Shown here: piece by piece, positions 1 through 24,845 of the stretch
Position numbering within the stretch: the stretch's first letter is position 1
Layout of the letters: every line of letters starts with the position of its first letter
Assembly: GCA_002189035.1 (NCBI GenBank)
Contig: NEEC01000096.1
Location: forward strand, 1-29,469
Length of the DNA: 29,469 nucleotides
Direction of reading: 5' to 3'
Source: Utricularia gibba
Taxonomy: Eukaryota; Streptophyta; Magnoliopsida; Lamiales; Lentibulariaceae
The notes under the pieces: generated by a model
Told to the model about the DNA's origin: nothing
Databases searched by the model: none
The model's input: the letters and a program-made list of their open reading frames with translations, nothing else
Position numbers and translations under genes: made by a program

Positions 1-3000
1 TTTCCATCTTGATCGCATATCCGATGAAGTTTGACACCATATGTTTTGGCTGTTGATTGATTCAATTAGTTGCCATGATACTTCTGATTCTTGATGCACC
101 ATTCCCATACACCATGTCTCTAGTGGCTATTTGATTCTTTTTGCCGTGTATCTTGTTTGCATCAATTTCGAGAACGAGAAGCACAATATTAAACGCAGCC
201 ACCAAGAAGGACACGTAAGACACTTTTCGTTGTGGTTTGTTTTTAATATGTCCACAGTTATCGACAAACGAAACTCCAAATTATACTACTTGGAGCTCGA
301 ATCGGGCTTCCCAATGGTGTGCTATGAAGAGTTAGGATCTGCATGTTTTGGAAGAGGTGCTTCGTGGACCAGGATGTGCGACCTAGTCATTTCATTGCGC
401 ATCACCATTCGGGGTGCAGCCAAAAACATGCACTGGATTCGTTAAAAGTAAACATTTTTGCGTACCTGGAGTATAATAGTGTTGGGATAAGTGATGCCAC
501 GAAATTCATGATGTAACATGTGACTTTTTCCATCTTGATCGCATATCCGATGAAGTTTGACACCATATGTTTTGGTGTTGATTGATTCAATTAGTTGCCA
601 TGATACTTCTGATTCTTGATGCACCATTCCCATACACCATGTCTCTAGTGGCTATTTGATTCTTTTGCCGTGTATCTTGTTTGCATCAATTTCGAGAACG
701 AGAAGCACAATATTAAACGCAGCCACCAAGGAAGGACACGTAAGACACTTTTCGTTGTGGTTTGTTTTTTAATATGTCCACAGTTATCGGACAAACGAAA
801 CTCCAAATTATACTACTTGGAGCTCGAATCGGGCTTCCCAATGGTGTGCTATGAAGAGTTAGGATCTGCATGTTTTGGAAGAGGTGCTTCGTAGACCAGG
901 ATGTGCGACCTAGTCATTTCATTGCGCATCACCATTCGGGGTGCAGCCTAAAATCACACGTGCACTGGATTCGTTAAAAGTAAACATTTTGCATACCTGA
1001 GTATACAATAGTGTTTGGATAAGTGATGCCACGAAATTCATGATGTAACATGTGACTTTTTTCCATCTTGATCGCATATCCGATGAAGTTTGACACCATA
1101 TGTTTTGGCTGTTGATTGATGCAATTAGTTGCTATGATACTTCTGATTCTTGATGCACCATTCCCTTACACCATGTCTCTAGTGGCTATTTGATTCTTTT
1201 GCCGTGTATCTTGTTTGCATCAATTTCGAGAACGAGAAGCACATATTAAACGCAGCCACCAAGGAAGGACACGTAAGACACTTTTCGTTGTGGTTTGTTT
1301 TTAATATGTCCAAGTTATGGACAAACGAAACTCCAAATTATACTACTTGGAGCTCGAATCGGGCTTCCCAATGGTGTGCTATGAAGAGTTAGCATCTGCA
1401 TGTTTTGGAAGAGGTGCTTCGTGGACCAGGATGTGCGACCTAGTCATTTCATTGCGCATCACCATTCGGGGTGCAGCCTAAAAATCACACGTGCACTGGA
1501 TTCGTTAAAAGTAAAATTTTTGCGTACCTGGAGTATAATAGTGTTGGGATAAGTGATGCCACGAAATTCATGATGTAACATGTGACTTTTTTCCATCTTG
1601 ATCGCATATCCGATGAAGTTTGACACCATATGTTTTGGCTGTTGATTGATCAATTAGTTGCCATGATACTTCTGATTCTTGATGCACCATTCCCATACAC
1701 CATGTCTCTAGTGGCTATTTGATTCTTTTGCCGTGTATTGTTTGCATCAATTTCGAGAACGAGAAGCACAATATTAAACGCAGCCACCAAGGAAGGACAC
1801 GTAAGACACTTTTCGTTGTGGTTTGTTTTTAATATGTCCACAGTTATCGGACAAACGAAACTCCAAATTATACTACTTGGAGCTCGAATCGGGCTTCCCA
1901 ATGGTGTGCTATGAAGAGTTAGGATCTGCATGTTTTGGAAGAGGTGCTTCGTGGACCAGGATGTGCGACCTAGTCATTTCATTGCGCATCACCATTCGGG
2001 GTGCAGCCTAAAAATCACACGTGCACTGGATTCGTTAAAAGTAAACATTTTGCGTACCTGGAGTATAATAGTGTTGGGATAAGTGATGCCACGAAATTCA
2101 TGATGTAACATGTGACTTTTTTCCATCTTGATCGCATATCCGATGAAGTTTGACACCATATGTTTTGGCTGTTGATTGATTCAATTAGTTGCCATGATAC
2201 TTCTGATTCTTGATGCACCATTCCCATACACCATGTCTCTAGTGGCTATTTGATTCTTTTGCCGTGTATCTTGTTGCATCAATTTCGAGAACGAGAAGCA
2301 CAATATTAAACGCAGCCACCAAGGAAGGACACGTAAGACACTTTTCGTTGTGGTTTGTTTTTAATATGTCCACAGTTATCGGACAAACGAAACTCCAAAT
2401 TATACTACTTGGAGCTCGAATCGGGCTTCCCAATGGTGTGCTATGAAGAGTTAGGATCTGCATGTTTTGGAAGAGGTGCTTCGTGGACCAGGATGTGCGA
2501 CCTAGTCATTTCATTGCGCATCACCATTCGGGGTGCAGCCTAAAAATCACACGTGCACTGGATTCGTTAAAAGTAAACATTTTTGCGTACCTGGAGTATA
2601 ATAGTGTTGGGATAAGTGATGCCACGAAATTCATGATGTAACATGTGACTTTTTTCCATCTTGATCGCATATCCGATGAAGTTTGACACCATATGTTTTG
2701 GCTGTTGATTGATTCAATTAGTTGCCATGATACTTCTGATTCTTGATGCACCATTCCCATACACCATGTCTCTAGTGGCTATTTGATTCTTTTGCCGTGT
2801 ATCTTGTTTGCATCAATTTCGAGAACGAGAAGCACAATATTAAACGCAGCCACCAAGGAAGGACACGTAAGACACTTTTCGTTGTGGTTTGTTTTTAATA
2901 TGTCCACAGTTATCGGACAAACGAAACTCCAAATTATACTACTTGGAGCTCGAATCGGGCTTCCCAATGGTGTGCTATGAAGAGTTAGGATCTGCATGTT

Positions 3001-3301
3001 TTGGAAGAGGTGCTTCGTGACCAGGATGTGCGACCTAGTCATTTCATTGCGCATCACCATTCGGGGTGCAGCCTAAAAATCACACGTGCACTGGATTTGT
3101 TAAAAATAAATATTTACGCATACCTGAGTATACAACAGTGTTGGGATAAGTGATGCCACGAAATTCATGATGTAACATGTGACTTTTTTCCATCTTGATC
3201 GCATATCCGATGAAGTTTGACACCATATGTTTTGGCTGTTGATTGATGCAATTAGTTGCTATGATACTTCTGATTCTTGATGCACCATTCCCATACACCA
3301 T

Positions 3302-3834
3302 GTCTCTAGTGGCTATTTGATTCTTTTGCCGTGTATCCCTTTGCATCAATTTCGAGAACGAGAAGCACAATATTAAACGCAGCCACCAAGGAAGGACACG
3401 TAAGACACTTTTCGTTGTGGTTTGTTTTTAATATGTCCACAGTTATCGGACAAACGAAACTCCAAATTATACTACTTGGAGCTCGAATCGGGCTTCCCAA
3501 TGGTGTGCTATGAAGAGTTAGGATCTGCATGTTTTGGAAGAGGTGCTTCGTGGACCAGGATGTGCGACCTAGTCATTTCATTGCGCATCACCATTCGGGG
3601 TGCAGCCTAAAAATCACACGTGCACTGGATTCGTTAAAAGTAAACATTTTTGCGTACCTGGAGTATAATAGTGTTGGGATAAGTGATGCCACGAAATTCA
3701 TGATGTAACATGTGACTTTTTTCCATCTTGATCGCATATCCGATGAAGTTTGACACCATATGTTTTGGCTGTTGATTGATTCAATTAGTTGCCATGATAC
3801 TTCTGATTCTTGATGCACCATTCCCATACACCAT
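3302..3834 (+). repeat. Representative odd (canonical) A monomer, M7, 533 bp
   Basis: This copy shows the canonical plan. After gtctctagtgg and gattcttttgccgtgtatc comes the indel hotspot just before gcatcaatttcg. Conserved blocks follow: the aaacgcagccaccaagg stretch, a gtttgtttttaatatgtcc AT-rich stretch, a short inverted repeat (arms ctccaa and ttggag), gcttcccaatgg, a catgttttggaagagg block, and ggggtgcagcctaaaaatc. Next is a cacgtg palindrome, then the dimer-defining segment with cctggagtata at 3657, then gccacgaaattcatgatg, the cttttttcc T-tract, gatcgcatatccgatgaag, and the block ending in ttgatgcacc. I see no internal subrepeat that would make the 533-bp unit a simple trimer of a shorter satellite. 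The cacgtg core resembles a plant G-box, but one short palindrome in a satellite is not evidence of transcription. Confidence 0.9.
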
Positions 3835-3870
3835 GTCTCTAGTGGCTATTTGATTCTTTTGCCGTGTATC

Positions 3871-3876
3871 TTGTTT
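3871..3876 (+). other. Indel hotspot (VR2), representative site
   Basis: Between the constant flanks gccgtgtatc and gcatcaatttcg the sequence changes from copy to copy: ttgttt, ttgtt, ttttt, tttt, ttt, ccttt and, in array B, catttt-like ccattt or cattt forms and one longer filler. Equivalent sites lie about 35 bp after each monomer start. The flanks are almost always unchanged, so variation is focused at one point. It is the main reason monomer lengths scatter within arrays A and B. Confidence 0.75.
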
Positions 3877-3993
3877 GCATCAATTTCGAGAACGAGAAGC
3901 ACAATATTAAACGCAGCCACCAAGGAAGGACACGTAAGACACTTTTCGTTGTGGTTTGTTTTTAATATGTCCACAGTTATCGGACAAACGAAA

Positions 3994-4015
3994 CTCCAAA
4001 TTATACTACTTGGAG
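3994..4015 (+). other. Short inverted repeat present in each monomer
   Basis: Arms ctccaa (3994-3999) and ttggag (4010-4015) are perfect reverse complements around a 10-base AT-rich spacer. The same structure is present in intact copies of both subfamilies, and it survives even in the diverged boundary at about 19290-19313. A six-base stem is short and could be chance, although its retention in the most scrambled region is notable. No function is claimed. Confidence 0.4.
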
Positions 4016-7000
4016 CTCGAATCGGGCTTCCCAATGGTGTGCTATGAAGAGTTAGGATCTGCATGTTTTGGAAGAGGTGCTTCGTGGACCAGGATGTGCG
4101 ACCTAGTCATTTCATTGCGCATCACCATTCGGGGTGCAGCCTAAAAATCACACGTGCACTGGATTCGTTAAAAGTAAACATTTTTGCGTACCTGAGTATA
4201 AACAGTGTTGGGATAAGTGATGCCACGAAATTCATGATGTAACATGTGACTTTTTTCCATCTTGATCGCATATCCGATGAAGTTTGACACCATATGTTTT
4301 GGCTGTTGATTGATTCAATTAGTTGCTATGATACTTCTGATTCTTGATGCACCATTCCCTTACACCATGTCTCTAGTGGCTATTTGATTCTTTTGCCGTG
4401 TATCTTTGCATCAATTTCGAGAACGAGAAGCACAATATTAAACGCAGCCACCAAGGAAGGACACGTAAGACACTTTTCGTTGTGGTTTGTTTTTAATATG
4501 TCCACAGTTATCGGACAAACGAAACTCCAAATTATACTACTTGGAGCTCGAATCGGGCTTCCCAATGGTGTGCTATGAAGAGTTAGGATCTGCATGTTTT
4601 GGAAGAGGTGCTTCGTGGACCAGGATGTGCGACCTAGTCATTTCATTGCGCATCACCATTCGGGGTGCAGCCTAAAAATCACACGTGCACTGGATTCGTT
4701 AAAAGTAAACATTTTTGCGTACCTGGAGTATAATAGTGTTGGGATAAGTGATGCCACGAAATTCATGATGTAACATGTGACTTTTTTCCATCTTGATCGC
4801 ATATCCGATGAAGTTTGACACCATATGTTTTGGCTGTTGATTGATTCAATTAGTTGCCATGATACTTCTGATTCTTGATGCACCATTCCCATACACCATG
4901 TCTCTAGTGGCTATTTGATTCTTTTGCCGTGTATCTTGTTTGCATCAATTTCGAGAACGAGAAGCACAATATTAAACGCAGCCACCAAGGAAGGACACGT
5001 AAGACACTTTTCGTTGTGGTTTGTTTTTAATATGTCCACAGTTATCGGACAAACGAAACTCCAAATTATACTACTTGGAGCTCGAATCGGGCTTCCCAAT
5101 GGTGTGCTATGAAGAGTTAGGATCTGCATGTTTTGGAAGAGGTGCTTCGTGGACCAGGATGTGCGACCTAGTCATTTCATTGCGCATCACCATTCGGGGT
5201 GCAGCCTAAAAATCACACGTGCACTGGATTTGTTAAAAATAAATTTTACGCATACCTGAGTATACAACAGTGTTGGGATAAGTGATGCCACGAAATTCAT
5301 GATGTAACATGTGACTTTTTTCCATCTTGATCGCATATCCGATGAAGTTTGACACCATATGTTTTGGCTGTTGATTGATTCAATTAGTTGCCATGATACT
5401 TCTGATTCTTGATGCACCATTCCCATACACCATGTCTCTAGTGGCTATTGATTCTTTTGCCGTGTATCTTTGCATCAATTTCGAGAACGAGAAGCACATA
5501 TTAAACGCAGCCACCAAGGAAGGACACGTAAGACACTTTTCGTTGTGGTTTGTTTTTAATATGTCCACAGTTATGGACAAACGAAACTCCAAATTATACT
5601 ACTTGGAGCTCGAATCGGGCTTCCCAATGGTGTGCTATGAAGAGTTAGGATCTGCATGTTTTGGAAGAGGTGCTTCGTGGACCAGGATGTGCGACCTAGT
5701 CATTTCATTGCGCATCACCATTCGGGGTGCAGCCTAAAAATCACACGTGCACTGGATTCGTTAAAAGTAAACATTTTTGCGTACCTGGAGTATAATAGTG
5801 TTGGGATAAGTGATGCCACGAAATTCATGATGTAACATGTGACTTTTTTCCATCTTGATCGCATATCCGATGAAGTTTGACACCATATGTTTTGGCTGTT
5901 GATTGATTCAATTAGTTGCCATGATACTTCTGATTCTTGATGCACCATTCCCATACACCATGTCTCTAGTGGCTATTTGATTCTTTTGCCGTGTATCTTG
6001 TTTGCATCAATTTCGAGAACGAGAAGCACAATATTAAACGCAGCCACCAAGGAAGGACACGTAAGACACTTTTCGTTGTGGTTTGTTTTTAATATGTCCA
6101 CAGTTATCGGACAAACGAAACTCCAAATTATACTACTTGGAGCTCGAATCGGGCTTCCCAATGGTGTGCTATGAAGAGTTAGGATCTGCATGTTTTGGAA
6201 GAGGTGCTTCGTGGACCAGGATGTGCGACCTAGTCATTTCATTGCGCATCACCATTCGGGGTGCAGCCTAAAAATCACACGTGCACTGGATTCGTTAAAA
6301 GTAAACATTTTTGCGTACCTGAGTATAATAGTGTTGGGATAAGTGATGCCACGAAATTCATGATGTAACATGTGACTTTTTTCCATCTTGATCGCATATC
6401 CGATGAAGTTTGACACCATATGTTTTGGCTGTTGATTGATTCAATTAGTTGCCATGATACTTCTGATTCTTGATGCACCATTCCCATACACCATGTCTCT
6501 AGTGGCTATTTGATTCTTTTGCCGTGTATCTTTTGCATCAATTTCGAGAACGAGAAGCACAATATTAAACGCAGCCACCAAGGAAGGACACGTAAGACAC
6601 TTTTCGTTGTGGTTTGTTTTTAATATGTCCACAGTTATCGGACAAACGAAACTCCAAATTATACTACTTGGAGCTCGAATCGGGCTTCCCAATGGTGTGC
6701 TATGAAGAGTTAGGATCTGCATGTTTTGGAAGAGGTGCTTCGTGGACCAGGATGTGCGACCTAGTCATTTCATTGCGCATCACCATTCGGGGTGCAGCCT
6801 AAAAATCACACGTGCACTGGATTCGTTAAAAGTAAACATTTTTGCGTACCTGGAGTATAATAGTGTTGGGATAAGTGATGCCACGAAATTCATGATGTAA
6901 CATGTGACTTTTTTCCATCTTGATCGCATATCCGATGAAGTTTGACACCATATGTTTTGGCTGTTGATTGATTCAATTAGTTGCCATGATACTTCTGATT

Positions 7001-10000
7001 CTTGATGCACCATTCCCATACACCATGTCTCTAGTGGCTATTTGATTCTTTTGCCGTGTATCTTTTTGCATCAATTTCGAGAACGAGAAGCACAATATTA
7101 AACGCAGCCACCAAGGAAGGACACGTAAGACACTTTTCGTTGTGGTTTGTTTTTAATATGTCCACAGTTATCGGACAAACGAAACTCCAAATTATACTAC
7201 TTGGAGCTCGAATCGGGCTTCCCAATGGTGTGCTATGAAGAGTTAGGATCTGCATGTTTTGGAAGAGGTGCTTCGTGGACCAGGATGTGCGACCTAGTCA
7301 TTTCATTGCGCATCACCATTCGGGGTGCAGCCTAAAAATCACACGTGCACTGGATTCGTTAAAAATAAATATTTACGCATACCTGAGTATATAGTGTTGG
7401 GATAAGTGATGCCACGAAATTCATGATGTAACATGTGACTTTTTTCCATCTTGATCGCATATCCGATGAAGTTTGACACCATATGTTTTGGCTGTTGATT
7501 GATTCAATTAGTTGCCATGATACTTCTGATTCTTGATGCACCATTCCCATACACCATGTCTCTAGTGGCTATTTGATTCTTTTGCCGTGTATCTTTGCAT
7601 CAATTTCGAGAACGAGAAGCACAATATTAAACGCAGCCACCAAGGAAGGACACGTAAGACACTTTTCGTTGTGGTTTGTTTTTAATATGTCCACAGTTAT
7701 CGGACAAACGAAACTCCAAATTATACTACTTGGAGCTCGAATCGGGCTTCCCAATGGTGTGCTATGAAGAGTTAGGATCTGCATGTTTTGGAAGAGGTGC
7801 TTCGTGACCAGGATGTGCGACCTAGTCATTTCATTGCGCATCACCATTCGGGGTGCAGCCTAAAAATCACACGTGCACTGGATTCGTTAAAAGTAAACAT
7901 TTTTGCGTACCTGGAGTATAATAGTGTTGGGATAAGTGATGCCACGAAATTCATGATGTAACATGTGACTTTTTTCCATCTTGATCGCATATCCGATGAA
8001 GTTTGACACCATATGTTTTGGCTGTTGATTGATTCAATTAGTTGCCATGATACTTCTGATTCTTGATGCACCATTCCCATACACCATGTCTCTAGTGGCT
8101 ATTTGATTCTTTTGCCGTGTATCTTGTTTGCATCAATTTCGAGAACGAGAAGCACAATATTAAACGCAGCCACCAAGGAAGGACACGTAAGACACTTTTC
8201 GTTGTGGTTTGTTTTTAATATGTCCACAGTTATCGGACAAACGAAACTCCAAATTATACTACTTGGAGCTCGAATCGGGCTTCCCAATGGTGTGCTATGA
8301 AGAGTTAGGATCTGCATGTTTTGGAAGAGGTGCTTCGTGGACCAGGATGTGCGACCTAGTCATTTCATTGCGCATCACCATTCGGGGTGCAGCCTAAAAA
8401 TCACACGTGCACTGGATTTGTTAAAATAAACATTTACGCATACCTGAGTATACAACAGTGTTGGGATAAGTGATGCCACGAAATTCATGATGTAACATGT
8501 GACTTTTTTCCATCTTGATCGCATATCCGATGAAGTTTGACACCATATGTTTTGGCTGTTGATTGATTCAATTAGTTGCTATGATACTTCTGATTCTTGA
8601 TGCACCATTCCCATACACCATGTCTCTAGTGGCTATTTGATTCTTTTGCCGTGTATCTTGTTTGCATCAATTTCGAGAACGAGAAGCACAATATTAAACG
8701 CAGCCACCAAGGAAGGACACGTAAGACACTTTTCGTTGTGGTTTGTTTTTAATATGTCCACAGTTATCGGACAAACGAAACTCCAAATTATACTACTTGG
8801 AGCTCGAATCGGGCTTCCCAATGGTGTGCTATGAAGAGTTAGGATCTGCATGTTTTGGAAGAGGTGCTTCGTGGACCAGGATGTGCGACCTAGTCATTTC
8901 ATTGCGCATCACCATTCGGGGTGCAGCCTAAAAATCACACGTGCACTGGATTCGTTAAAAGTAAACATTTTTGCGTACCTGGAGTATAATAGTGTTGGGA
9001 TAAGTGATGCCACGAAATTCATGATGTAACATGTGACTTTTTTCCATCTTGATCGCATATCCGATGAAGTTTGACACCATATGTTTTGGCTGTTGATTGA
9101 TTCAATTAGTTGCCATGATACTTCTGATTCTTGATGCACCATTCCCATACACCATGTCTCTAGTGGCTATTTGATTCTTTTGCCGTGTATCTTTTTGCAT
9201 CAATTTCGAGAACGAGAAGCACAATATTAAACGCAGCCACCAAGGAAGGACACGTAAGACACTTTTCGTTGTGGTTTGTTTTTAATATGTCCACAGTTAT
9301 CGGACAAACGAAACTCCAAATTATACTACTTGGAGCTCGAATCGGGCTTCCCAATGGTGTGCTATGAAGAGTTAGGATCTGCATGTTTTGGAAGAGGTGC
9401 TTCGTGGACCAGGATGTGCGACCTAGTCATTTCATTGCGCATCACCATTCGGGGTGCAGCCTAAAAATCACACGTGCACTGGATTCGTTAAAAATAAACA
9501 TTTGCGTACCTGAGTATACAGTGTTGGGATAAGTGATGCCACGAAATTCATGATGTAACATGTGACTTTTTTCCATCTTGATCGCATATCCGATGAAGTT
9601 TGACACCATATGTTTTGGCTGTTGATTGATTCAATTAGTTGCCATGATACTTCTGATTCTTGATGCACCATTCCCATACACCATGTCTCTAGTGGCTATT
9701 TGATTCTTTTGCCGTGTATCTTTGCATCAATTTCGAGAACGAGAAGCACAATATTAAACGCAGCCACCAAGGAAGGACACGTAAGACACTTTTCGTTGTG
9801 GTTTGTTTTTAATATGTCCACAGTTATCGGACAAACGAAACTCCAAATTATACTACTTGGAGCTCGAATCGGGCTTCCCAATGGTGTGCTATGAAGAGTT
9901 AGGATCTGCATGTTTTGGAAGAGGTGCTTCGTGGACCAGGATGTGCGACCTAGTCATTTCATTGCGCATCACCATTCGGGGTGCAGCCTAAAAATCACAC

Positions 10001-13000
10001 GTGCACTGGATTCGTTAAAAGTAAACATTTTTGCGTACCTGGAGTATAATAGTGTTGGGATAAGTGATGCCACGAAATTCATGATGTAACATGTGACTTT
10101 TTTCCATCTTGATCGCATATCCGATGAAGTTTGACACCATATGTTTTGGCTGTTGATTGATTCAATTAGTTGCCATGATACTTCTGATTCTTGATGCACC
10201 ATTCCCATACACCATGTCTCTAGTGGCTATTTGATTCTTTTGCCGTGTATCTTTTGCATCAATTTCGAGAACGAGAAGCACAATATTAAACGCAGCCACC
10301 AAGGAAGGACACGTAAGACACTTTTCGTTGTGGTTTGTTTTTAATATGTCCACAGTTATCGGACAAACGAAACTCCAAATTATACTACTTGGAGCTCGAA
10401 TCGGGCTTCCCAATGGTGTGCTATGAAGAGTTAGGATCTGCATGTTTTGGAAGAGGTGCTTCGTGGACCAGGATGTGCGACCTAGTCATTTCATTGCGCA
10501 TCACCATTCGGGGTGCAGCCTAAAAATCACACGTGCACTGGATTCGTTAAAAGTAAACATTTTTGCGTACCTGAGTATAAATAGTGTTGGGATAAGTGAT
10601 GCCACGAAATTCATGATGTAACATGTGACTTTTTTCCATCTTGATCGCATATCCGATGAAGTTTGACACCATATGTTTTGGCTGTTGATTGATTCAATTA
10701 GTTGCCATGATACTTCTGATTCTTGATGCACCATTCCCATACACCATGTCTCTAGTGGCTATTTGATTCTTTTGCCGTGTATCTTTTTGCATCAATTTCG
10801 AGAACGAGAAGCACAATATTAAACGCAGCCACCAAGGAAGGACACGTAAGACACTTTTCGTTGTGGTTTGTTTTTAATATGTCCACAGTTATCGGACAAA
10901 CGAAACTCCAAATTATACTACTTGGAGCTCGAATCGGGCTTCCCAATGGTGTGCTATGAAGAGTTAGGATCTGCATGTTTTGGAAGAGGTGCTTCGTGGA
11001 CCAGGATGTGCGACCTAGTCATTTCATTGCGCATCACCATTCGGGGTGCAGCCTAAAAATCACACGTGCACTGGATTCGTTAAAAGTAAACATTTTTGCG
11101 TACCTGGAGTATAATAGTGTTGGGATAAGTGATGCCACGAAATTCATGATGTAACATGTGACTTTTTTCCATCTTGATCGCATATCCGATGAAGTTTGAC
11201 ACCATATGTTTTGGCTGTTGATTGATGCAATTAGTTGCCATGATACTTCTGATTCTTGATGCACCATTCCCATACACCATGTCTCTAGTGGCTATTTGAT
11301 TCTTTTGCCGTGTATCTTGTTTGCATCAATTTCGAGAACGAGAAGCACAATATTAAACGCAGCCACCAAGGAAGGACACGTAAGACACTTTTCGTTGTGG
11401 TTTGTTTTTAATATGTCCACAGTTATCGGACAAACGAAACTCCAAATTATACTACTTGGAGCTCGAATCGGGCTTCCCAATGGTGTGCTATGAAGAGTTA
11501 GGATCTGCATGTTTTGGAAGAGGTGCTTCGTGGACCAGGATGTGCGACCTAGTCATTTCATTGCGCATCACCATTCGGGGTGCAGCCTAAAAATCACACG
11601 TGCACCGGATTCGTTAAAATAAACATTTATACCTGAGTATAATAGTGTTGGGATAAGTGATGCCACGAAATTCATGATGTAACATGTGACTTTTTTCCAT
11701 CTTGATCGCATATCCGATGAAGTTTGACACCATATGTTTTGGCTGTTGATTGATCAATTAGTTGCCATGATACTTCTGATTCTTGATGCACCATTCCCTT
11801 ACACCATGTCTCTAGTGGCTATTTGATTCTTTTGCCGTGTATCTTTGCATCAATTTCGAGAACGAGAAGCACAATATTAAACGCAGCCACCAAGGAAGGA
11901 CACGTAAGACACTTTTCGTTGTGGTTTGTTTTTAATATGTCCACAGTTATCGGACAAACGAAACTCCAAATTATACTACTTGGAGCTCGAATCGGGCTTC
12001 CCAATGGTGTGCTATGAAGAGTTAGGATCTGCATGTTTTGGAAGAGGTGCTTCGTGGACCAGGATGTGCGACATAGTCATTTCATTGCGCATCACCATTC
12101 GGGGTGCAGCCTAAAAATCACACGTGCACTGGATTCGTTAAAAGTAAACATTTTTGCGTACCTGGAGTATAATAGTGTTGGGATAAGTGATGCCACGAAA
12201 TTCATGATGTAACATGTGACTTTTTTCCATCTTGATCGCATATCCGATGAAGTTTGACACCATATGTTTTGGCTGTTGATTGATTCAATTAGTTGCCATG
12301 ATACTTCTGATTCTTGATGCACCATTCCCATACACCATGTCTCTAGTGGCTATTTGATTCTTTTGCCGTGTATCTTGTTTGCATCAATTTCGAGAACGAG
12401 AAGCACAATATTAAACGCAGCCACCAAGGAAGGACACGTAAGACACTTTTCGTTGTGGTTTGTTTTTAATATGTCCACAGTTATCGGACAAACGAAACTC
12501 CAAATTATACTACTTGGAGCTCGAATCGGGCTTCCCAATGGTGTGCTATGAAGAGTTAGGATCTGCATGTTTTGGAAGAGGTGCTTCGTGGACCAGGATG
12601 TGCGACCTAGTCATTTCATTGCGCATCACCATTCGGGGTGCAGCCTAAAAATCACACGTGCACTGGATTCGTTAAAAGTAAACATTTTTGCGTACCTGGA
12701 GTATAATAGTGTTGGGATAAGTGATGCCACGAAATTCATGATGTAACATGTGACTTTTTTCCATCTTGATCGCATATCCGATGAAGTTTGACACCATATG
12801 TTTTGGCTGTTGATTGATTCAATTAGTTGCCATGATACTTCTGATTCTTGATGCACCATTCCCATACACCATGTCTCTAGTGGCTATTTGATTCTTTTGC
12901 CGTGTATCTTGTTTGCATCAATTTCGAGAACGAGAAGCACAATATTAAACGCAGCCACCAAGGAAGGACACGTAAGACACTTTTCGTTGTGGTTTGTTTT

Positions 13001-14462
13001 TAATATGTCCACAGTTATCGGACAAACGAAACTCCAAATTATACTACTTGGAGCTCGAATCGGGCTTCCCAATGGTGTGCTATGAAGAGTTAGGATCTGC
13101 ATGTTTTGGAAGAGGTGCTTCGTGGACCAGGATGTGCGACCTAGTCATTTCATTGCGCATCACCATTCGGGGTGCAGCCTAAAAATCACACGTGCACTGG
13201 ATTCGTTAAAAGTAAACATTTTTGCGTACCTGGAGTATAATAGTGTTGGGATAAGTGATGCCACGAAATTCATGATGTAACATGTGACTTTTTTCCATCT
13301 TGATCGCATATCCGATGAAGTTTGACACCATATGTTTTGGCTGTTGATTGATTCAATTAGTTGCATGATACTTCTGATTCTTGATGCACCATTCCCTTAC
13401 ACCATGTCTCTAGTGGCTATTTGATTCTTTTGCCGTGTATCTTTGCATCAATTTCGAGAACGAGAAGCACATATTAAACGCAGCCACCAAGGAAGGACAC
13501 GTAAGACACTTTTCGTTGTGGTTTGTTTTTAATATGTCCACAGTTATCGGACAAACGAAACTCCAAATTATACTACTTGGAGCTCGAATCGGGCTTCCCA
13601 ATGGTGTGCTATGAAGAGTTAGATCTGCATGTTTTGGAAGAGGTGCTTCGTGGACCAGGATGTGCGACCTAGTCATTTCATTGCGCATCACCATTCGGGG
13701 TGCAGCCTAAAAATCACACGTGCACTGGATTCGTTAAAAGTAAATTTTTGCGTACCTGAGTATAATAGTGTTGGGATAAGTGATGCCACGAAATTCATGA
13801 TGTAACATGTGACTTTTTTCCATCTTGATCGCATATCCGATGAAGTTTGACACCATATGTTTTGGCTGTTGATTGATTCAATTAGTTGCCATGATACTTC
13901 TGATTCTTGATGCACCATTCCCATACACCATGTCTCTAGTGGCTATTTGATTCTTTTGCCGTGTATCTTTTGCATCAATTTCGAGAACGAGAAGCACATA
14001 TTAAACGCAGCCACCAAGGAAGGACACGTAAGACACTTTTCGTTGTGGTTTGTTTTTAATATGTCCACAGTTATCGGACAAACGAAACTCCAAATTATAC
14101 TACTTGGAGCTCGAATCGGGCTTCCCAATGGTGTGCTATGAAGAGTTAGGATCTGCATGTTTTGGAAGAGGTGCTTCGTGGACCAGGATGTGCGACCTAG
14201 TCATTTCATTGCGCATCACCATTCGGGGTGCAGCCTAAAAATCACACGTGCACTGGATTCGTTAAAAGTAAACATTTTTGCGTACCTGGAGTATAATAGT
14301 GTTGGGATAAGTGATGCCACGAAATTCATGATGTAACATGTGACTTTTTTCCATCTTGATCGCATATCCGATGAAGTTTGACACCATATGTTTTGGCTGT
14401 TGATTGATTCAATTAGTTGCCATGATACTTCTGATTCTTGATGCACCATTCCCATACACCAT

Positions 14463-14984
14463 GTCTCTAGTGGCTATTTGATTCTTTTGCCGTGTATCTT
14501 GTTTGCATCAATTTCGAGAACGAGAAGCACAATATTAAACGCAGCCACCAAGGAAGGACACGTAAGACACTTTTCGTTGTGGTTTGTTTTTAATATGTCC
14601 ACAGTTATCGGACAAACGAAACTCCAAATTATACTACTTGGAGCTCGAATCGGGCTTCCCAATGGTGTGCTATGAAGAGTTAGGATCTGCATGTTTTGGA
14701 AGAGGTGCTTCGTGGACCAGGATGTGCGACCTAGTCATTTCATTGCGCATCACCATTCGGGGTGCAGCCTAAAAATCACACGTGCACTGGATTCGTTAAA
14801 AGGCGTACCTGAGTATAACAGTGTTGGGATAAGTGATGCCACGAAATTCATGATGTAACATGTGACTTTTTTCCATCTTGATCGCATATCCGATGAAGTT
14901 TGACACCATATGTTTTGGCTGTTGATTGATTCAATTAGTTGCCATGATACTTCTGATTCTTGATGCACCATTCCCATACACCAT
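14463..14984 (+). repeat. M28, even monomer with deletion in the dimer-defining segment
   Basis: After ggattcgttaaaag the copy goes directly to gcgtacctgag (about 14803), losing about 11 bases (taaacattttt) found in other copies. It keeps the even-type cctgagtat form at 14808. A comparable but larger loss is seen in M34, where ctgga joins cgcatacc at 17854. Deletions in this segment occur preferentially in even monomers. Confidence 0.75.
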
Positions 14985-16573
14985 GTCTCTAGTGGCTTTT
15001 GATTCTTTTGCCGTGTATCTTTGCATCAATTTCGAGAACGAGAAGCACAATATTAAACGCAGCCACCAAGGAAGGACACGTAAGACACTTTTCGTTGTGG
15101 TTTGTTTTTAATATGTCCACAGTTATCGGACAAACGAAACTCCAAATTATACTACTTGGAGCTCGAATCGGGCTTCCCAATGGTGTGCTATGAAGAGTTA
15201 GGATCTGCATGTTTTGGAAGAGGTGCTTCGTGGACCAGGATGTGCGACCTAGTCATTTCATTGCGCATCACCATTCGGGTGCAAAAAATCACACGTGCAC
15301 TGGATTCGTTAAAAGTAAACATTTTTGCGTACCTGGAGTATAATAGTGTTGGGATAAGTGATGCCACGAAATTCATGATGTAACATGTGACTTTTTTCCA
15401 TCTTGATCGCATATCCGATGAAGTTTGACACCATATGTTTTGGCTGTTGATTGATTCAATTAGTTGCCATGATACTTCTGATTCTTGATGCACCATTCCC
15501 ATACACCATGTCTCTAGTGGCTATTTGATTCTTTTGCCGTGTATCTTGTTTGCATCAATTTCGAGAACGAGAAGCACAATATTAAACGCAGCCACCAAGG
15601 AAGGACACGTAAGACACTTTTCGTTGTGGTTTGTTTTTAATATGTCCACAGTTATCGGACAAACGAAACTCCAAATTATACTACTTGGAGCTCGAATCGG
15701 GCTTCCCAATGGTGTGCTATGAAGAGTTAGGATCTGCATGTTTTGGAAGAGGTGCTTCGTGGACCAGGATGTGCGACCTAGTCATTTCATTGCGCATCAC
15801 CATTCGGGTGCAGCCTAAAAATCACACGTGCACTGGATTCGTTAAAAGTAAACATTTTTGCGTACCTGAGTATATAAAGTGTTGGGATAAGTGATGCCAC
15901 GAAATTCATGATGTAACATGTGACTTTTTTCCATCTTGATCGCATATCCGATGAAGTTTGACACCATATGTTTTGGCTGTTGATTGATTCAATTAGTTGC
16001 CATGATACTTCTGATTCTTGATGCACCATTCCCTACACCATGTCTCTAGTGGCTATTTGATTCTTTTGCCGTGTATCTTGTTGCATCAATTTCGAGAACG
16101 AGAAGCACAATATTAAACGCAGCCACCAAGGAAGGACACGTAAGACACTTTTCGTTGTGGTTTGTTTTTAATATGTCCACAGTTATCGGACAAACGAAAC
16201 TCCAAATTATACTACTTGGAGCTCGAATCGGGCTTCCCAATGGTGTGCTATGAAGAGTTAGGATCTGCATGTTTTGGAAGAGGTGCTTCGTGGACCAGGA
16301 TGTGCGACATAGTCATTTCATTGCGCATCACCATTCGGGTGCAGCCTAAAAATCACACGTGCACTGGATTCGTTAAAAGTAAACATTTTTGCGTACCTGG
16401 AGTATAATAGTGTTGGGATAAGTGATGCCACGAAATTCATGATGTAACATGTGACTTTTTTCCATCTTGATCGCATATCCGATGAAGTTTGACACCATAT
16501 GTTTTGGCTGTTGATTGATTCAATTAGTTGCCATGATACTTCTGATTCTTGATGCACCATTCCCATACACCAT

Positions 16574-17524
16574 GTCTCTAGTGGCTATTTGATTCTTTTG
16601 CCGTGTATCTTGATCAATTTCGAGAACGAGAAGCACAATATTAAACGCAGCCACCAAGGAAGGACACGTAAGACACTTTTCGTTGTGGTTTGTTTTTAAT
16701 ATGTCCACAGTTATCGGACAAACGAAACTCCAAATTATACTACTTGCGAATCGGGCTTCCCATGGTGTGCTACTGCATGTCTTCGTGGACCAGGATGTGC
16801 GACCTAGTCATTTCATTGCGCATCACCATTCGGGGTGCAGCCTAAAAATCACACGTGCACTGGATTCGTTAAAAGTAAACATTTTTGCGTACCTGAGTAG
16901 TATAAGTGATGCCACGAAATTCATGATGTAACATGTGACTTTTTTCCATCTTGATCGCATAGATGAAGTTTGACACATATGTTTTGGCTGCAATTAGTTG
17001 CATGATGATTCTTGAACCATGTCTCTAGTGGCTATTTGATTCTTTTGCCGTGTATCCATCAATTTCGAGAACGATATTAAACGCAGCCACCAAGGAAGGA
17101 CACGTAAGACACTTTTCGTTGTGGTTTGTTTTTAATATGTCCACAGTTATCTCCAAATTATACTACTTGGAGCTCGAATCGGGCTTCCCAATGGTGTGCT
17201 ATGAAGAGTTAGGATCTGCATGTTTTGGAAGAGGTGCTTCGTGGACCAGGATGTGCGACCTAGTCATTTCATTGCGCATCACCATTCGGGGTGCAGCCTA
17301 AAAATCACACGTGCACTGGATTCGTTAAAAGTAAACATTTTTGCGTACCTGGAGTATAATAGTGTTGGGATAAGTGATGCCACGAAATTCATGATGTAAC
17401 ATGTGACTTTTTTCCATCTTGATCGCATATCCGATGAAGTTTGACACCATATGTTTTGGCTGTTGATTGATTCAATTAGTTGCCATGATACTTCTGATTC
17501 TTGATGCACCATTCCCATACACCA
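16574..17524 (+). repeat. M32-M33, monomers eroded by many small deletions
   Basis: From 16746 to 17150 the sequence aligns to the A consensus almost entirely by removing pieces. Examples are 5 bases after tacttg (16746), 1 base in ttccca, about 14 bases after gtgcta, about 13 after gcatgt, two pieces around 16896-16905, 3 bases at gcata/gatg (about 16970), and pieces of the gattgat, acttct and ccattcccatac stretches. Further losses are about 7 bases at gtatc/catc (17056), about 10 after aacg (17073) and about 13 at gttat/ctcc (17150/17151). I see essentially no substitutions among the retained bases. The monomers shrink to 447 and 504 bp. The flanking copies M31 and M34 are otherwise normal. 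Confidence 0.85.
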
Positions 17525-18033
17525 TGTCTCTAGTGGCTATTTGATTCTTTTGCCGTGTATCTTGTTTGCATCAATTTCGAGAACGAGAAGCACAATATTA
17601 AACGCAGCCACCAAGGAAGGACACGTAAGACACTTTTCGTTGTGGTTTGTTTTTAATATGTCCACAGTTATCGGACAAACGAAACTCCAAATTATACTAC
17701 TTGGAGCTCGAATCGGGCTTCCCAATGGTGTGCTATGAAGAGTTAGGATCTGCATGTTTTGGAAGAGGTGCTTCGTGGACCAGGATGTGCGACCTAGTCA
17801 TTTCATTGCGCATCACCATTCGGGGTGCAGCCTAAAAATCACACGTGCACTGGACGCATACCTGAGTATACAGTGTTGGGATAAGTGATGCCACGAAATT
17901 CATGATGTAACATGTGACTTTTTTCCATCTTGATCGCATATCCGATGAAGTTTGACACCATATGTTTTGGCTGTTGATTGATAATTAGTTGCATGATACT
18001 TCTGATTCTTGATGCACCATTCCCATACACCAT
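17525..18033 (+). repeat. M34, shortened even A monomer (509 bp)
   Basis: The copy is normal up to cgtgcactgga. About 20 bases of the dimer-defining segment are then missing and it resumes at cgcatacctgagtata (cctgag at 17861). Two smaller losses near 17982-17994 remove bases in the gattgattcaattag and ttgcc stretches. It is the last even-type copy in array A. Confidence 0.78.
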
Positions 18034-19043
18034 GTCTCTAGTGGCTATTTGATTCTTTTGCCGTGTATCTTTGCATCAATTTCGAGAACGAGAAGCACAT
18101 ATTAAACGCAGCCACCAAGGAAGGACACGTAAGACACTTTTCGTTGTGGTTTGTTTTTAATATGTCCACAGTTATGGACAAACGAAACTCCAAATTATAC
18201 TACTTGGAGCTCGAATAGGGCTTCCCAATGGTGTGCTATGAAGAGTTAGGATCTGCATGTTTTGGAAGAGGTGCTTCGTGGACCAGGATGTGCGACCTAG
18301 TCATTTCATTGCGCATCACCATTCGGGGTGCAGCCTAAAAATCACACGTGCACTGGATTCGTTAAAAGTAAACATTTTTGCGTACCTGGAGTATAATAGT
18401 GTTGGGATAAGTGATGCCACGAAATTCATGATGTAACATGTGACTTTTTTCCATCTTGATCGCATATCCGATGAAGTTTGACACCATATGTTTTGGCTGT
18501 TGATTGATTCAATTAGTTGCCATGATACTTCTGATTCTTGATGCACCATTCCCATACACCATGTCTCTAGTGGCTATTTGATTCTTTTGCCGTGTATCTT
18601 GTTTGCATCAATTTCGAGAACGAGAAGCACATATTAAACGCAGCCACCAAGGAAGGACACGTAAGACACTTTTCGTTGTGGTTTGTTTTTAATATGTCCA
18701 CAGTTATGGACAAACGAAACTCCAAATTATACTACTTGGAGCTCGAATCGGGCTTCCCAATGGTGTGCTATGAAGAGTTAGGATCTGCATGTTTTGGAAG
18801 AGGTGCTTCGTGACCAGGATGTGCGACTAGTCATTTCATTGCGCATCACCATTCGGGTGCAGCCTAAAAGTGCAAAACATTTTTGCGTACCTGGAGTATA
18901 ATAGTGTTGGGATAAGTGATGCCACGAAATTCATGATGTAACATGTGACTTTTTTCCATCTTGATCGCATATCCGATGAAGTTTGACACCATATGTTTTG
19001 GCTGTTGATTGAAATTAGTTGCCATGATACTTCTGATTCTTGA
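18034..19043 (+). repeat. M35-M36, distal end of array A
   Basis: Both carry cacatatt instead of cacaatatt and gttatggac instead of gttatcggac, a linked pair otherwise seen in array A only in M3 and M11. M36 has lost bases in gaccta, in ggggtgc, and about 25 bases of the atcacacgtgcactgg stretch (cctaaaagtgc near 18868). The last recognisable continuous satellite is gatacttctgattcttga, ending at 19043, where the scrambled boundary begins. Confidence 0.8.
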
Positions 19044-19880
19044 ACGTGACATGGTAGTTAATATGTCCAGTATTTTGGATTAACCTGTGCTTCGTTGTGC
19101 GATTGATCGCATGAGAAGTGATGCCACGAAATTCATGATGTAACATGTGACATCTTGATCGCATATCCGATGAAGTTTGACACATATGTTTTGGCATTGA
19201 TTTAGTTGCCATGATACTTCTGATTCTTGATGCACCATGTCTCTAGTGGCTATTGATTCTTTTGCCGTGTAATGTCTTAGGGACAAACGAACTCCAAATT
19301 ATACTACTTGGAGCACGACCTGCACTACCAATGTTAGTGCGAGAAGACATTCGTTAGCATCGTGCCATTCATCATGTGGAAGATGAAGTACACATTCCAA
19401 CGGATTCTTTGCGACCTTAATCGTGTTATATGTCCACAGGGTGGAGCACGACACTACTGTTGTGATTAGGTGCAAACATTTTTGCGTACCTGCTGAAAGT
19501 GGATTAGCCATCTGCATTCATGATGGAAGTGACTTTTTGGCAGATGCATATCCGTTATGTGCACATACTGGCGTTGATTGATGCAATCACACGTTGTTCG
19601 CGTACCTGATACTTCATGATTAACATGTGAATCTTGATCGCATATCCGATGAAGTTTGACACATATGTTTTGGCTGTTGACCATGATACTTCTGAGATGG
19701 TCTCTAGTGGCTATGATTCTTTTGCCGTGTATCCATCAATTTCGATCGCATTTTTCGAATATGTCCACACGAGAAGTTATATGAACTGCATGCTTCACCA
19801 ATGTTAGGATCACGCAAGACTGGATTCGCATCGTACCTGGACCACGAAATTCATGATGTAACATGTGACTGATCGCATAT
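19044..19880. repeat. Scrambled, diverged satellite boundary between arrays A and B
   Basis: Monomer order breaks down here. Recognisable pieces are a gccacgaaattcatgatg block near 19120-19195, gtctctagtgg at 19239 and again near 19700, the inverted-repeat block with gagcacgac near 19290-19318, ttttgcgtacctg near 19480, gatcgcatatccgatgaag near 19637, and cttttgccgtgtatc near 19720. Between them are stretches (about 19044-19117, 19315-19480 and 19500-19615) made of short satellite-like words in unusual order or too diverged to align by eye. Some words carry B-type bases (gagcacg, gattgatgcaat), so the zone looks closer to subfamily B. I see no gene or transposon in it. It may be an old, unhomogenised array edge or a mis-assembled join. 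Confidence 0.75.
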
Positions 19881-21129
19881 CCCACATATGACAATTAGTT
19901 GCCATGATACTTCTGATTCTTGATGCACCATTCCCATTGTCTCCTATTTGATTCTTTTGCCGTGTATCTTGGCATCAATTTCGAGAACGAGAAGCACATT
20001 ATTAAACGCAGCCACCAAGGAAGGACACGTAAGACACTTTTCGTTGTGGTTTGTTTTTAATATGTCCACAGTTATGGGACAAACGTAACTCCAAATTATA
20101 CTACTTGGAGCACGAATAGGGCTTCCCAATGGTGTGCTATGAAGAGTTAGCATCTGCATGTTTTGGAAGAGGTGCTTCGTGGACCAGGATGTGCGACAGT
20201 CATTTCATTGCGCATCATTTGCATCACACGTGCACTGCAAAAGTAAACATTTTTGCGTACAGTATAATAGTGTTGGGATAAGTGATGCCACGAAATTCAT
20301 GATGTAACATGTGACTTTTTTCCATCTTGATCGCATATCCGATGAAGTTTGACACATATGTTTGGCTGTTGATTGATTCAATTAGTTGCCATGATACTTC
20401 TGATTCTTGACACCATTCCCATACACCATGTCTCTAGTGGCTATTTGATTCTTTTCCGTGTAATCAATTTCGAGAACGAGAAGCACATATTAAACGCAGC
20501 CACCAAGGAAGGACACGTAAGACACTTTTCGTTGTGGTTTGTTTTTAATATGTCGTTATGGACAAACGTAACTCCAAATTATACTACTTGGAGCACGAAT
20601 AGGGCTTCCCAATGGTGTGCTATGAAGAGTTAGTCTGCATGTTTTGGAAGAGGTGCTTCGTGAAGGATGTGCGACATAGTCATTTCATTGCGCATCACCA
20701 TTCGGGTGCAGCCTAAAAATCACACGTGCACTGGATTCGTTAAAAGTAAACATTTTTGCGTACCTGGAGTATAATAGTGTTGGGATAAGTGATGCCACGA
20801 AATTCATGATGTAACATGTGACTTTTTTCCATCTTGATCGCATATCCGATGAAGTTTGACACCATATGTTTTGGCTGTTGATTGATGCAATTAGTTGCCA
20901 TGATACTTCTGATTCTTGATACACCATTCCCATACACCATGTCTCTAGTGGCTATTTGATTCTTTTGCCGTGTATCTTGTTTGCATCAATTTCGAGAACG
21001 AGAAGCACATTATTAAACGCAGCCACCAAGGAAGGACACGTAAGACACTTTTCGTTGTGGTTTGTTTTTAATATGTCCACAGTTATGGGACAAACGTAAC
21101 TCCAAATTATACTACTTGGAGCACGAATT
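19881..21129 (+). repeat. Proximal B-subfamily monomers with deletions
   Basis: Monomer starts are at about 19939 (degraded start motif), 20430 and 20941, with intervals of 491 and 511 bp. The first copy already has B marks: cacattatt, gttatggg, cgtaactcc, gagcacgaataggg and gttagcatc. The copy from 20430 is mixed, having cacatattaaac (as in M3, M11, M35 and M36), a short gtcgttatggac stretch that lost part of the ccacag region, and gcctaaaaatc (A-type). The third copy is normal until about 21129, where it breaks. Confidence 0.82.
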
Positions 21130-21420
21130 CCCAAACTGCCACCAGGATGTGTAGTCATTTCATTGCGCATCACCATTCGGAGCCGAGACTGGATTCGTTA
21201 AAAGTAAACATTTTTGCGTACCTGCCACGAAATTCATGATGTAACATGTGACATCTTGATCGCATATCCGATGAAGTTTGACACGTATCACATGATACTT
21301 CTGGACACCATGTGATTCTTTATCGCATGTCGTTTTTCGTTGTGGTTTGTTTTTAATATGTCCACACAAACGTCCAACTCCACGAATTATACGCCATACA
21401 TAGGCGCAGCAGCGTGCACT
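21130..21420 (+). repeat. Compressed monomer remnants (230-bp spacing)
   Basis: The landmark ggattcgtta occurs at 21191 and again at 21421, only 230 bp apart instead of about 533. The intervening copy keeps blocks in the right order (cctg joined to ccacgaaattcatgatg, gatcgcatatccgatgaag, tgatacttctg, gacaccatgtgattctt, then a gttgtggtttgtttttaatatg-type block), with large pieces missing and a diverged stretch at about 21368-21412. The preceding landmark spacing (20733 to 21191) is 458 bp. The long minus-strand reading frame crossing this point (21160-21621) exists only because deletions removed stops; it is not a gene. Confidence 0.8.
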
Positions 21421-22619
21421 GGATTCGTTAAAAGTAAACATTTTTGCGTACCTGGAGTATAATAGTGTTGGGATAAGTGATGCCACGAAATTCATGATGT
21501 AACATGTGACTTTTTTCCATCTTGATCGCATATCCGATGAAGTTTGACACCATATGTTTTGGCTGTTGATTGATGCAATTAGTTGCCATGATACTTCTGA
21601 TTCTTGATGCACCATTCCCATACACCATGTCTCTAGTGGCTATTTGATTCTTTTGCCGTGTATCTTTGCATCAATTTCGAGAACGAGAAGCACATTATTA
21701 AACGCAGCCACCAAGGAAGGACACGTAAGACACTTTTCGTTGTGGTTTGTTTTTAATATGTCCACAGTTATGGACAAACGTAACTCCAAATTATACTACT
21801 TGGAGCACGAATAGGGCTTCCCAATGGTGTGCTATGAAGAGTTAGCATCTGCATGTTTTGGAAGAGGTGCTTCGTGGACCAGGATGTGCGACATAGTCAT
21901 TTCATTGCGCATCACCATTCGGGGTGCAGCCGAAAAATCACACGTGCACTGGATTCGTTAAAAGTAAACATTTTTGCGTACCTGGAGTATAATAGTGTTG
22001 GGATAAGTGATGCCACGAAATTCATGATGTAACATGTGACTTTTTTCCATCTTGATCGCATATCCGATGAAGTTTGACACCATATGTTTTGGCTGTTGAT
22101 TGATGCAATTAGTTGCCATGATACTTCTGATTCTTGATACACCATTCCCATACACCATGTCTCTAGTGGCTATTTGATTCTTTTGCCGTGTATCTTTTTG
22201 CATCAATTTCGAGAACGAGAAGCACATTATTAAACGCAGCCACCAAGGAAGGACACGTAAGACACTTTTCGTTGTGGTTTGTTTTTAATATGTCCACAGT
22301 TATGGACAAACGTAACTCCAAATTATACTACTTGGAGCACGAATAGGGCTTCCCAATGGTGTGCTATGAAGAGTTAGCATCTGCATGTTTTGGAAGAGGT
22401 GCTTCGTGGACCAGGATGTGCGACATAGTCATTTCATTGCGCATCACCATTCGGGTGCAGCCGAAAAATCACACGTGCACTGGATTCGTTAAAAGTAAAC
22501 ATTTTTGCGTACCTGGAGTATAATAGTGTTGGGATAAGTGATGCCACGAAATTCATGATGTAACATGTGACTTTTTCCATCTTGATCGCATATCCGATGA
22601 AGTTTGACACCATATGTTT

Positions 22620-22770
22620 TGGCTGTTGATTGATGCAATTAGTTGCCATGATACTTCTGATTCTTGATACACCATGTCTCTAGTGGCTATTTGATTCTTT
22701 TGCCGTGTATCCATTTGCATCAATTTCGAGAACGAGAAGCACATTATTAAACGTTTTTCGTTGTGGTTTG
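22620..22770 (+). repeat. Two clean deletions in neighbouring B monomers
   Basis: At about 22668-22675 the usual acaccattcccatacaccatg has collapsed to a single acaccatg. The lost segment lies between two acaccat direct repeats, as expected for slippage or single-strand annealing. At about 22754 aaacg joins ttttcgttg directly, losing roughly 30 bases of the cagccaccaagg...taagacac region. They shorten the monomers starting at 22159 and 22675 to 516 and 500 bp. Confidence 0.8.
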
Positions 22771-24750: not shown

Positions 24751-24792
24751 CACCATTCCCATACACCATGTCACCATTCCCATACACCATGT
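24751..24792 (+). repeat. Perfect 21-bp tandem duplication
   Basis: The unit at 24751-24771 (beginning caccattccc and ending caccatgt) is repeated exactly at 24772-24792. In other copies it occurs once. It contains two accat words that could have served as the slippage site. It lengthens this monomer and lies only about 30 bases before the filler insertion at the indel hotspot. Confidence 0.92.
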
Positions 24793-24825
24793 CTCTAGTG
24801 GCTATTTGATTCTTTTGCCGTGTAT

Positions 24826-24845
24826 CATTTCATTGCGCATTTCGC
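24826..24845 (+). other. Templated-looking filler at the indel hotspot
   Basis: After gccgtgtatc this copy has catttcattgcgcat, then ttcgcatc. The inserted word matches the constant catttcattgcgcat block that sits elsewhere in every monomer (for instance about 24499-24513 and 25075-25090), so it looks copied from another part of the same repeat, as in end-joining repair with templated insertion. Confidence 0.75.

What the first reader, a model, noticed from the sequence alone, without database searches (positions are those of the whole stretch)
2768..18033. Dimeric higher-order repeat of ~1,063 bp next to a monomeric array
Seen: 15 even-type segments (cctgagtat) all fall on even-numbered monomers (M2, M6-M22, M26-M34), while all 18 odd monomers M1-M35 have cctggagtat. 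M4, M24 and M36 are even copies carrying the odd form. Known: such alternation marks a higher-order repeat homogenised as a dimer. Inference: array A has been amplified by unequal exchange in steps of two monomers, and M24 may mark a conversion event, since parity is unchanged across it. Array B, metres of sequence away in evolutionary terms but adjacent here, shows no such structure.
Basis: partly seen in the sequence, partly recalled or inferred. Interest (0 to 1): 0.7.

Follow-up and report, generated by a model that had tools for sequence, protein, structure and literature searches.

The report
Two-step plant satellite repeat array
The alternation is real, but it comes almost wholly from one short 38-base stretch that differs in every second copy of a 533-base plant satellite repeat, in a contig whose fine detail is blurred by probable assembly errors.

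Summary
Confirmed in substance. The window is a complete contig made of one 533-bp satellite. In its first 18.9 kb the form cctgagtat occurs 14 times, always on one parity; all 18 odd copies carry cctggagtat (11 of 11 strongly departing copies on one parity, P=1.1e-4).

Consensus even (three best copies) and odd monomers agree outside a ~38-bp box (0 differences; 9 inside), and a tree without the box does not separate parity. One other 3-bp site alternates. The even copy looks like a mosaic: 'A' backbone plus the box of a diverged 'E' subfamily found elsewhere.

Much of the apparent variation is probably consensus error: deletions are 11 times commoner at variable sites. So the 'conversion at M24' and the A/B junction cannot be trusted.

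The genome (probably Utricularia gibba, inferred) holds at least 1,671 copies, in monomeric arrays, this shallow dimer, a tetramer, and a deep 1,058-bp dimer (C97: halves ~92% alike, dimers 98-100%). One paper speaks of absent satellites at putative centromeres there (PMC8333044, passages). An ordinary kind of element, worth recording.

The parts
1..18921 (+). Array A: a partial monomer plus 35 monomers (a few shortened) of the 533-bp satellite, 'A' backbone; even copies carry the E box or a blurred E/o hybrid, except M4, M24 and M36
3098..3137 (+).
   Evidence: sequence; group consensus
5231..5269 (+).
8419..8457 (+).
2803..2810 (+). CTTGTTTG: second alternating site, TTG state commoner in copies of the even-box parity
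   Evidence: sequence (G at column 184: 13 of 18 against 3 of 16 copies, p=0.0026)
3337..3343 (+). CCCTTTG: the same site in the next copy, a partial CCCATTTG; most copies of the odd parity read CTTTG, CTTTTG or similar
16720..17150 (+). Part of two shortened monomers (484 and 468 bp) with many dropped bases
   Evidence: two stretches within score 0.95-0.96 per base as ordered sub-sequences of the monomer
18860..21415 (+). A-to-B transition with short or scrambled monomers (202, 718, 446, 430, 258 bp); probably failed consensus, possibly a misjoin
21415..29469 (+). Array B: same satellite, 'B' backbone, odd-type box (a ggtgtat variant in 3 copies), no dimer signal in 11 aligned copies
27855..28130 (+). 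Scrambled stretch with interleaved insertions inside array B
28394..28881 (+). Two short monomers, 240 and 248 bp

Best explanation
The contig is part of a long 533-bp plant satellite. Shown: array A alternates two kinds of copy that share one backbone and differ in a ~38-bp box (and a 3-bp site); the even box is that of a diverged subfamily (E) present in E-only arrays elsewhere. Inferred: a short gene-conversion tract (or double crossover) copied the E box into one A monomer, and unequal exchange or replication slippage then multiplied the pair in steps of about 1,064 bp. Shown: base drop-outs among copies are strongly concentrated at sites where variants differ. Inferred: these are consensus errors from reads of several copies piled together. 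Inferred: the array is heterochromatic bulk, possibly centromeric or pericentromeric on chromosomes that were not assembled whole; no centromere role is shown.
For: Parity. Consensus of the three best even copies against 16 odd copies: 0 differences outside columns 470-520, 9 inside; the same even copies against E of C165a (9 monomers): 26 outside, 1 inside. The exact E box occurs 774 times genome-wide; among the 100 places listed it recurs about every 535 bp in C83 and mostly at ~1,058 bp or its multiples in C79, C80, C97. C507 shows even-lag excess in and outside the box (0 of 300 permutations each). Deletions: 7.2% at 31 variable columns against 0.64% at 482 constant ones; away from homopolymers 6.1% against 0.46%; within-contig variability correlates with deletion, Spearman 0.35 over 395 cells.
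Against: No raw reads were available, so phase and copy number rest on an error-laden consensus. The best-of-lags test is 133 of 2000 for the window, 71 of 2000 for C507 and 166 of 2000 for its first 20 monomers. The box was chosen after seeing the data, and only 3 of 18 even-slot copies were used as full E; consensus comparisons ignore gaps, so the 3-bp site counts as no difference. Conversion direction and tract ends are inferred. The TC of the full E box is missing in the window copies and is assumed lost. Part of the deletion excess is a true one-base difference between the boxes: without columns 505-507 the rate is about 6.6% (my arithmetic). C214, nearly uniform in its box, has the highest deletion rates of all (15.5% variable, 2.1% constant columns).
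Confidence: 0.7

Rival explanations
1. The alternation is an ordinary dimeric higher-order repeat of two old, separately diverged monomers; most differences are erased by consensus blending.
For: Deep dimers of this kind exist in the same family: C97 adjacent halves 91.6-93.5% alike, dimers 98.5-100%. Blending of phases would lower the observed divergence. One 3-bp site outside the box does alternate.
Against: The three best even copies carry the A base, without drop-outs, at the columns outside the box where E (C165a) differs. The tree without the box does not split by parity.
Confidence: 0.16
2. The alternation is an assembly artefact.
For: The consensus is poor; scrambled stretches at 18.9-21.4 kb and 27.9-28.1 kb; drop-outs cluster at variable sites.
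Against: Mixing reads should blur alternation, not create a strict parity over 34 aligned copies; a like alternation and a clean 1,058-bp dimer occur on other contigs.
Confidence: 0.08
3. The two box versions are alternative protein-binding sites whose spacing is under selection, as in alpha satellite with its alternating A and B boxes (comparison recalled, not tested).
For: Box divergence exceeds backbone divergence (A_o against E of C165a 8/38 and 26/496, p=0.0015; against C214 8/38 and 9/496, p=4.8e-6); the box consensus is the same in C165a and C214 while their backbones differ at 17 of 496 columns.
Against: The box was picked because it varies most, so these p-values are too small; o-only and E-only arrays both exist; no binding protein is known; the 0/38 against 17/496 contrast is not significant (p=0.62).
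Confidence: 0.06

Closest known systems
Dimeric higher-order repeats of alpha satellite and of plant centromeric satellites (recalled)
   Same: Head-to-tail monomers, alternation of two monomer types; one short box distinguishes the types, as the A and B boxes do in alpha satellite
   Different: Here the two monomers are otherwise nearly the same; monomer 533 bp, not 171; centromere function not shown; no CENP-B box was sought
Genlisea nigrocaulis (same plant family) 161-bp repeat Gn7c161, (peri)centromere-associated by FISH (PMC4542322, passages read)
   Same: Tandem repeat in a very small Lentibulariaceae genome
   Different: 161 against 533 bp; sequences not compared; no FISH here
Gh19c56, a 900-bp tandem repeat of Genlisea hispidula with FISH signal on one chromosome pair (PMC4542322, passages read)
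   Same: Long monomer; perhaps limited to few chromosomes here too
   Different: Length; sequence not compared

Membership tests
Satellite DNA | Long head-to-tail arrays of one monomer, many copies, non-coding | tested here: met
   57 anchor hits in the window, most 520-536 apart; at least 1,671 core matches genome-wide; no Rfam match; largest ORF 153 aa
Higher-order repeat | Identity at multiples of n monomers exceeds that at other lags | tested here: met
   Box: window 3 of 300, C507 0 of 300 permutations, but best-of-lags 133 and 71 of 2000; clean 1,058-bp dimer in C97; C318 lag 4, 12 of 2000
Higher-order repeat | Monomers of the unit diverged along their whole length (two clades) | tested here: not met
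   Window: 0 consensus differences outside the box, tree not split by parity. In C97 halves are 91.6-93.5% alike, so it is met there
Centromeric satellite | Occupied by CENH3, at primary constrictions of all or most chromosomes | not testable with these tools
   No ChIP or FISH. In lists capped at 100 places and evidently sorted by contig, no exact core stands before C157 and no exact E box before C79, so none on C1-C4; diverged copies there are not excluded
Gene-conversion mosaic | Short tract from one subfamily inside the backbone of another | tested here: met
   Three best even copies: 26 outside and 1 inside differences to E (C165a), 0 outside and 9 inside to A_o. That conversion made it is inferred
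rDNA spacer sub-repeat | Adjacent rRNA genes | tested here: inconclusive
   No Rfam match in the window; the C507 flank was not scanned; a 5.8S search of the genome returned none, with 39 of 2610 candidates scored

The most novel reading that the evidence does not exclude
A single plant satellite family, in a miniature genome whose putative centromeres are described as without satellites, preserves successive stages of higher-order repeat birth: single-type arrays, a dimer born by a 38-bp box swap, a tetramer, and an old fully diverged dimer. The box is a swappable functional module, like the alpha-satellite A and B boxes.
Probability: 0.1. Interest if true: 0.72.

Novelty: new member of a known kind. 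Interest (0 to 1): 0.42.

Why it matters
If confirmed on accurate reads, the family would show how a higher-order repeat begins: a swap of some 40 bp followed by amplification in pairs, with later stages present in the same genome. It would also add to the published remark that putative centromeres of Utricularia gibba lack satellite repeats (PMC8333044, passages read): the four long contigs show no listed exact copy, but other contigs hold at least 1,671 core matches, about 0.9 Mb at 533 bp each. A practical warning follows: in long-read consensus of satellites, deletions may mark places where variants were merged, and should not be read at once as mutations or conversions.

Tried and rejected
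Internal sub-repeat of the monomer: none (best internal shift 31% identity). RNA family: none. Plasmid relative: none (one search, of little bearing). Similar repeats in other plants: no tool here holds plant genomes, so not tested.

A pentamer in C165b (lag 5; 228 of 2000) and a 7-mer in C195 (lag 7; 380 of 2000) are not significant. A trimer in C171 suspected by eye was not borne out: lags 2 and 4 score higher than 3 over all variable columns. My first idea that no satellite lies before C157 was wrong: those searches used o/A-type words, and exact E boxes begin at C79.

My first reading of the C79/C80/C97 arrays used the anchor of array A and missed nearly every second monomer (2 of 13 pieces were of single-monomer length). 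therefore compares mostly whole dimers, and only splits the halves, for C97 alone.

Rows dropped: of 469 monomers cut, 430 of 480-550 bp were aligned; the 39 others, among them 10 of 56 of the window, were left out of the later counts. Contigs C165, C185 and C214 were sampled only in part, and C79, C80 and C97 by 3.6, 6.5 and 4.0 kb.

Conversion at M24: rejected as untestable here. Organism by rRNA: RF01960 gave a machine error, 5.8S found nothing.

Papers: PMC8333044, PMC10663240, PMC6982007 and PMC4542322 by passages; others only as search listings. Lan et al. 2017 (10.1073/pnas.1702072114) is not held; what I know of it is recalled. A search for 'Utricularia gibba' with 'satellite DNA' found 9 papers, all listed; PMC8333044 alone has the species in its title, and I did not open the other 8. 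The listings (20 of 1,706, 20 of 1,049, 15 of 4,582 and 12 of 1,657 papers shown) hold no title that announces a U. gibba satellite. One search, on consensus errors, gave listings only and was not followed.
Full report
Setting. The window is the whole of contig C216 (29,469 bp) of a genome of 100,091,633 bases in 516 contigs. It carries Arabidopsis-type telomere repeats, TTTAGGG, at the start of C1, C2 and C3 and at the end of C3 (100 of 560 places listed). C1-C4 measure 8.50, 6.19, 5.35 and 3.85 Mb. One paper gives Utricularia gibba as 101 Mb with accession range NEEC01000001-NEEC01000518 and four chromosomes (PMC6982007, passages), and another speaks of 4 putatively entire chromosomes (PMC8333044, passages). 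I therefore take the organism to be U. gibba; this is inference.

Observation. The window is a tandem array of a 533-bp unit. By literal search the even form cctgagtat occurs 14 times, the odd form cctggagtat 35 times and a cctggtgtat form 3 times. Of 34 aligned copies in array A, 11 depart strongly from the odd form, all in the 18 slots of one parity, P=1.1e-4.

How deep is the dimer? Inside the segment, even lags are more alike than odd lags (0.787 and 0.840 at lags 2 and 4, 0.746 and 0.733 at lags 1 and 3, on variable columns; 3 of 300 permutations). Outside it the differences are slight: 0.948 and 0.947 against 0.931 and 0.942, 16 of 300; with gaps counted as a state, 10 of 1000. One site about 300 bp away alternates too: the TTG of CTTGTTTG has its G in 13 of 18 copies of the even-box parity and 3 of 16 of the other. 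A tree of 32 monomers without the segment does not divide by parity (8 changes, shuffled mean 9.0, 166 of 500 as low; 0 of 19 inner branches well supported). A test that allows for choice of lag gives 133 of 2000 for the window.

Mosaic anatomy. The consensus of the three best even copies equals that of the 16 odd copies at every column outside 470-520 and differs at 9 inside; gaps are ignored, so the 3-bp site does not show. For all 11 departing copies of that parity together the figures are 0 and 6. Against the E subfamily of contig C165 (9 monomers) the three even copies differ at 26 columns outside and 1 inside. So the even monomer looks like an A backbone with an E box of about 38 bp. In 430 aligned monomers from 10 contigs, A backbones carry 148 o, 10 E and 65 hybrid or gapped boxes; B backbones 77, 0 and 9; mixed 41, 28 and 43; E backbones 0, 9 and 0.

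Consensus errors. Over the 430 monomers, deletions occur at 7.2% of cells in 31 variable columns and 0.64% in 482 constant columns; about 6.6% without columns 505-507, where the two boxes truly differ by a base (my arithmetic). Outside homopolymers the rates are 6.1% and 0.46%. Within contigs the deletion rate rises with variability, from 2.4% where the contig is uniform to 9.4% where the minor form reaches 25% (395 cells, Spearman 0.35; 0.29 after centring by column). The uniform array C185c has 0.8% at the variable columns; against the trend, C214 with a nearly uniform box has 15.5%, in part from the true box difference and from its mixed backbone. The plain explanation is that reads of different copies were merged and conflicting bases dropped: CACAATATT and CACATTATT give CACATATT, CTTGTTTG and CCCATTTG give CTTTG. 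The link to merged reads is inference; the enrichment is measured. Among the damaged stretches, 16,700-16,800 and 16,895-17,080 score 0.96 and 0.95 per base as ordered sub-sequences of the monomer (best of 20 composition shuffles 78 of 101 and 136 of 186 bases); 21,125-21,225 scores 92 (shuffles up to 77), 21,270-21,410 120 (105), 27,855-28,130 213 (188), 19,260-19,845 401 (293); 19,030-19,125 is barely above shuffles, 77 against 74.

Genome-wide. A 32-base core with up to 3 mismatches has 1,671 places, so about 0.89 Mb at 533 bp each. The exact 31-base odd pattern has 461 places and the exact 40-base E box 774. The printed lists are capped at 100 places and run in contig order as far as seen; they show no exact core before C157 and no exact E box before C79, so none on C1-C4; diverged copies are not excluded. 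Contig C507 (642.5 kb) begins with about 45.0 kb of the array, then passes into AT-rich DNA without a match to the monomer, with an Armadillo-repeat exon (PF16186, 1.1e-20) about 9 kb further on (1 of 9 ORFs of that 10-kb flank matched any family). The copies near that edge look richer in substitutions (seen by eye; not counted).

Other orders. In C185 (three samples) 48 of 48 aligned monomers have the o box; in the sample of C214, 12 of 15 are full E and 3 hybrid; the first 9 of C165a are all E. In C83 the exact E box has 38 listed places, 35 of 37 spacings being 533-535 bp. C507 has even-lag excess in and outside the box (0 of 300 each), though its best-of-lags test is 71 of 2000. C319 alternates outside the box but not in it (0 of 300 and 127 of 300). 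C318 has a four-monomer period in the box (12 of 2000). C79, C80 and C97 have E boxes mostly about 1,058 bp or a multiple apart; in a 4-kb sample of C97 adjacent halves are 91.6-93.5% alike and halves one dimer apart 98.5-100%.

Mechanism. Shown: two box versions, shared backbone, alternation, the same E box elsewhere. Inferred: the box entered by a short conversion tract, then unequal exchange multiplied the pair. Function: most likely none beyond heterochromatic bulk; a centromere role is possible but untested.

Comparison with print. PMC8333044 (passages) says that low lncRNA density at putative U. [quoted passage not shown] My result does not contradict this for exact copies on C1-C4. I found no description of a 533-bp satellite of this species in the searches, which cover only open-licence papers and, except, showed only the top of long lists.

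Noticed in passing
L066 (C97), L067 (C79), L065 (C80): Clean 1,058-bp dimeric repeat of the same satellite; in C97 the halves measure 522 and 534-536 bp and are 91.6-93.5% alike, a much deeper dimer than that of the window.
   Followed up: partly
C318 (L052, L053, L014, L054): Box pattern with a period of four monomers, 12 of 2000 permutations.
   Followed up: partly
C83 (listed positions only, not fetched): 38 exact E boxes listed, 35 of 37 spacings 533-535 bp: an E-only array.
   Followed up: no
L028 (C507:641901-642500): The 642.5-kb contig that begins in the satellite ends in a few TTTAGGG and TTCAGGG-like units; a telomere or an interstitial stretch.
   Followed up: no
contig lengths: 5 of 33 contig lengths seen are exact multiples of 500 (8,500,000; 6,192,500; 642,500; 27,500; 17,500), which looks like cutting at processing chunks rather than true ends.
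   Followed up: no
24751-24793: A 21-bp piece (CACCATTCCCATACACCATGT) is duplicated in tandem inside one B monomer.
   Followed up: no
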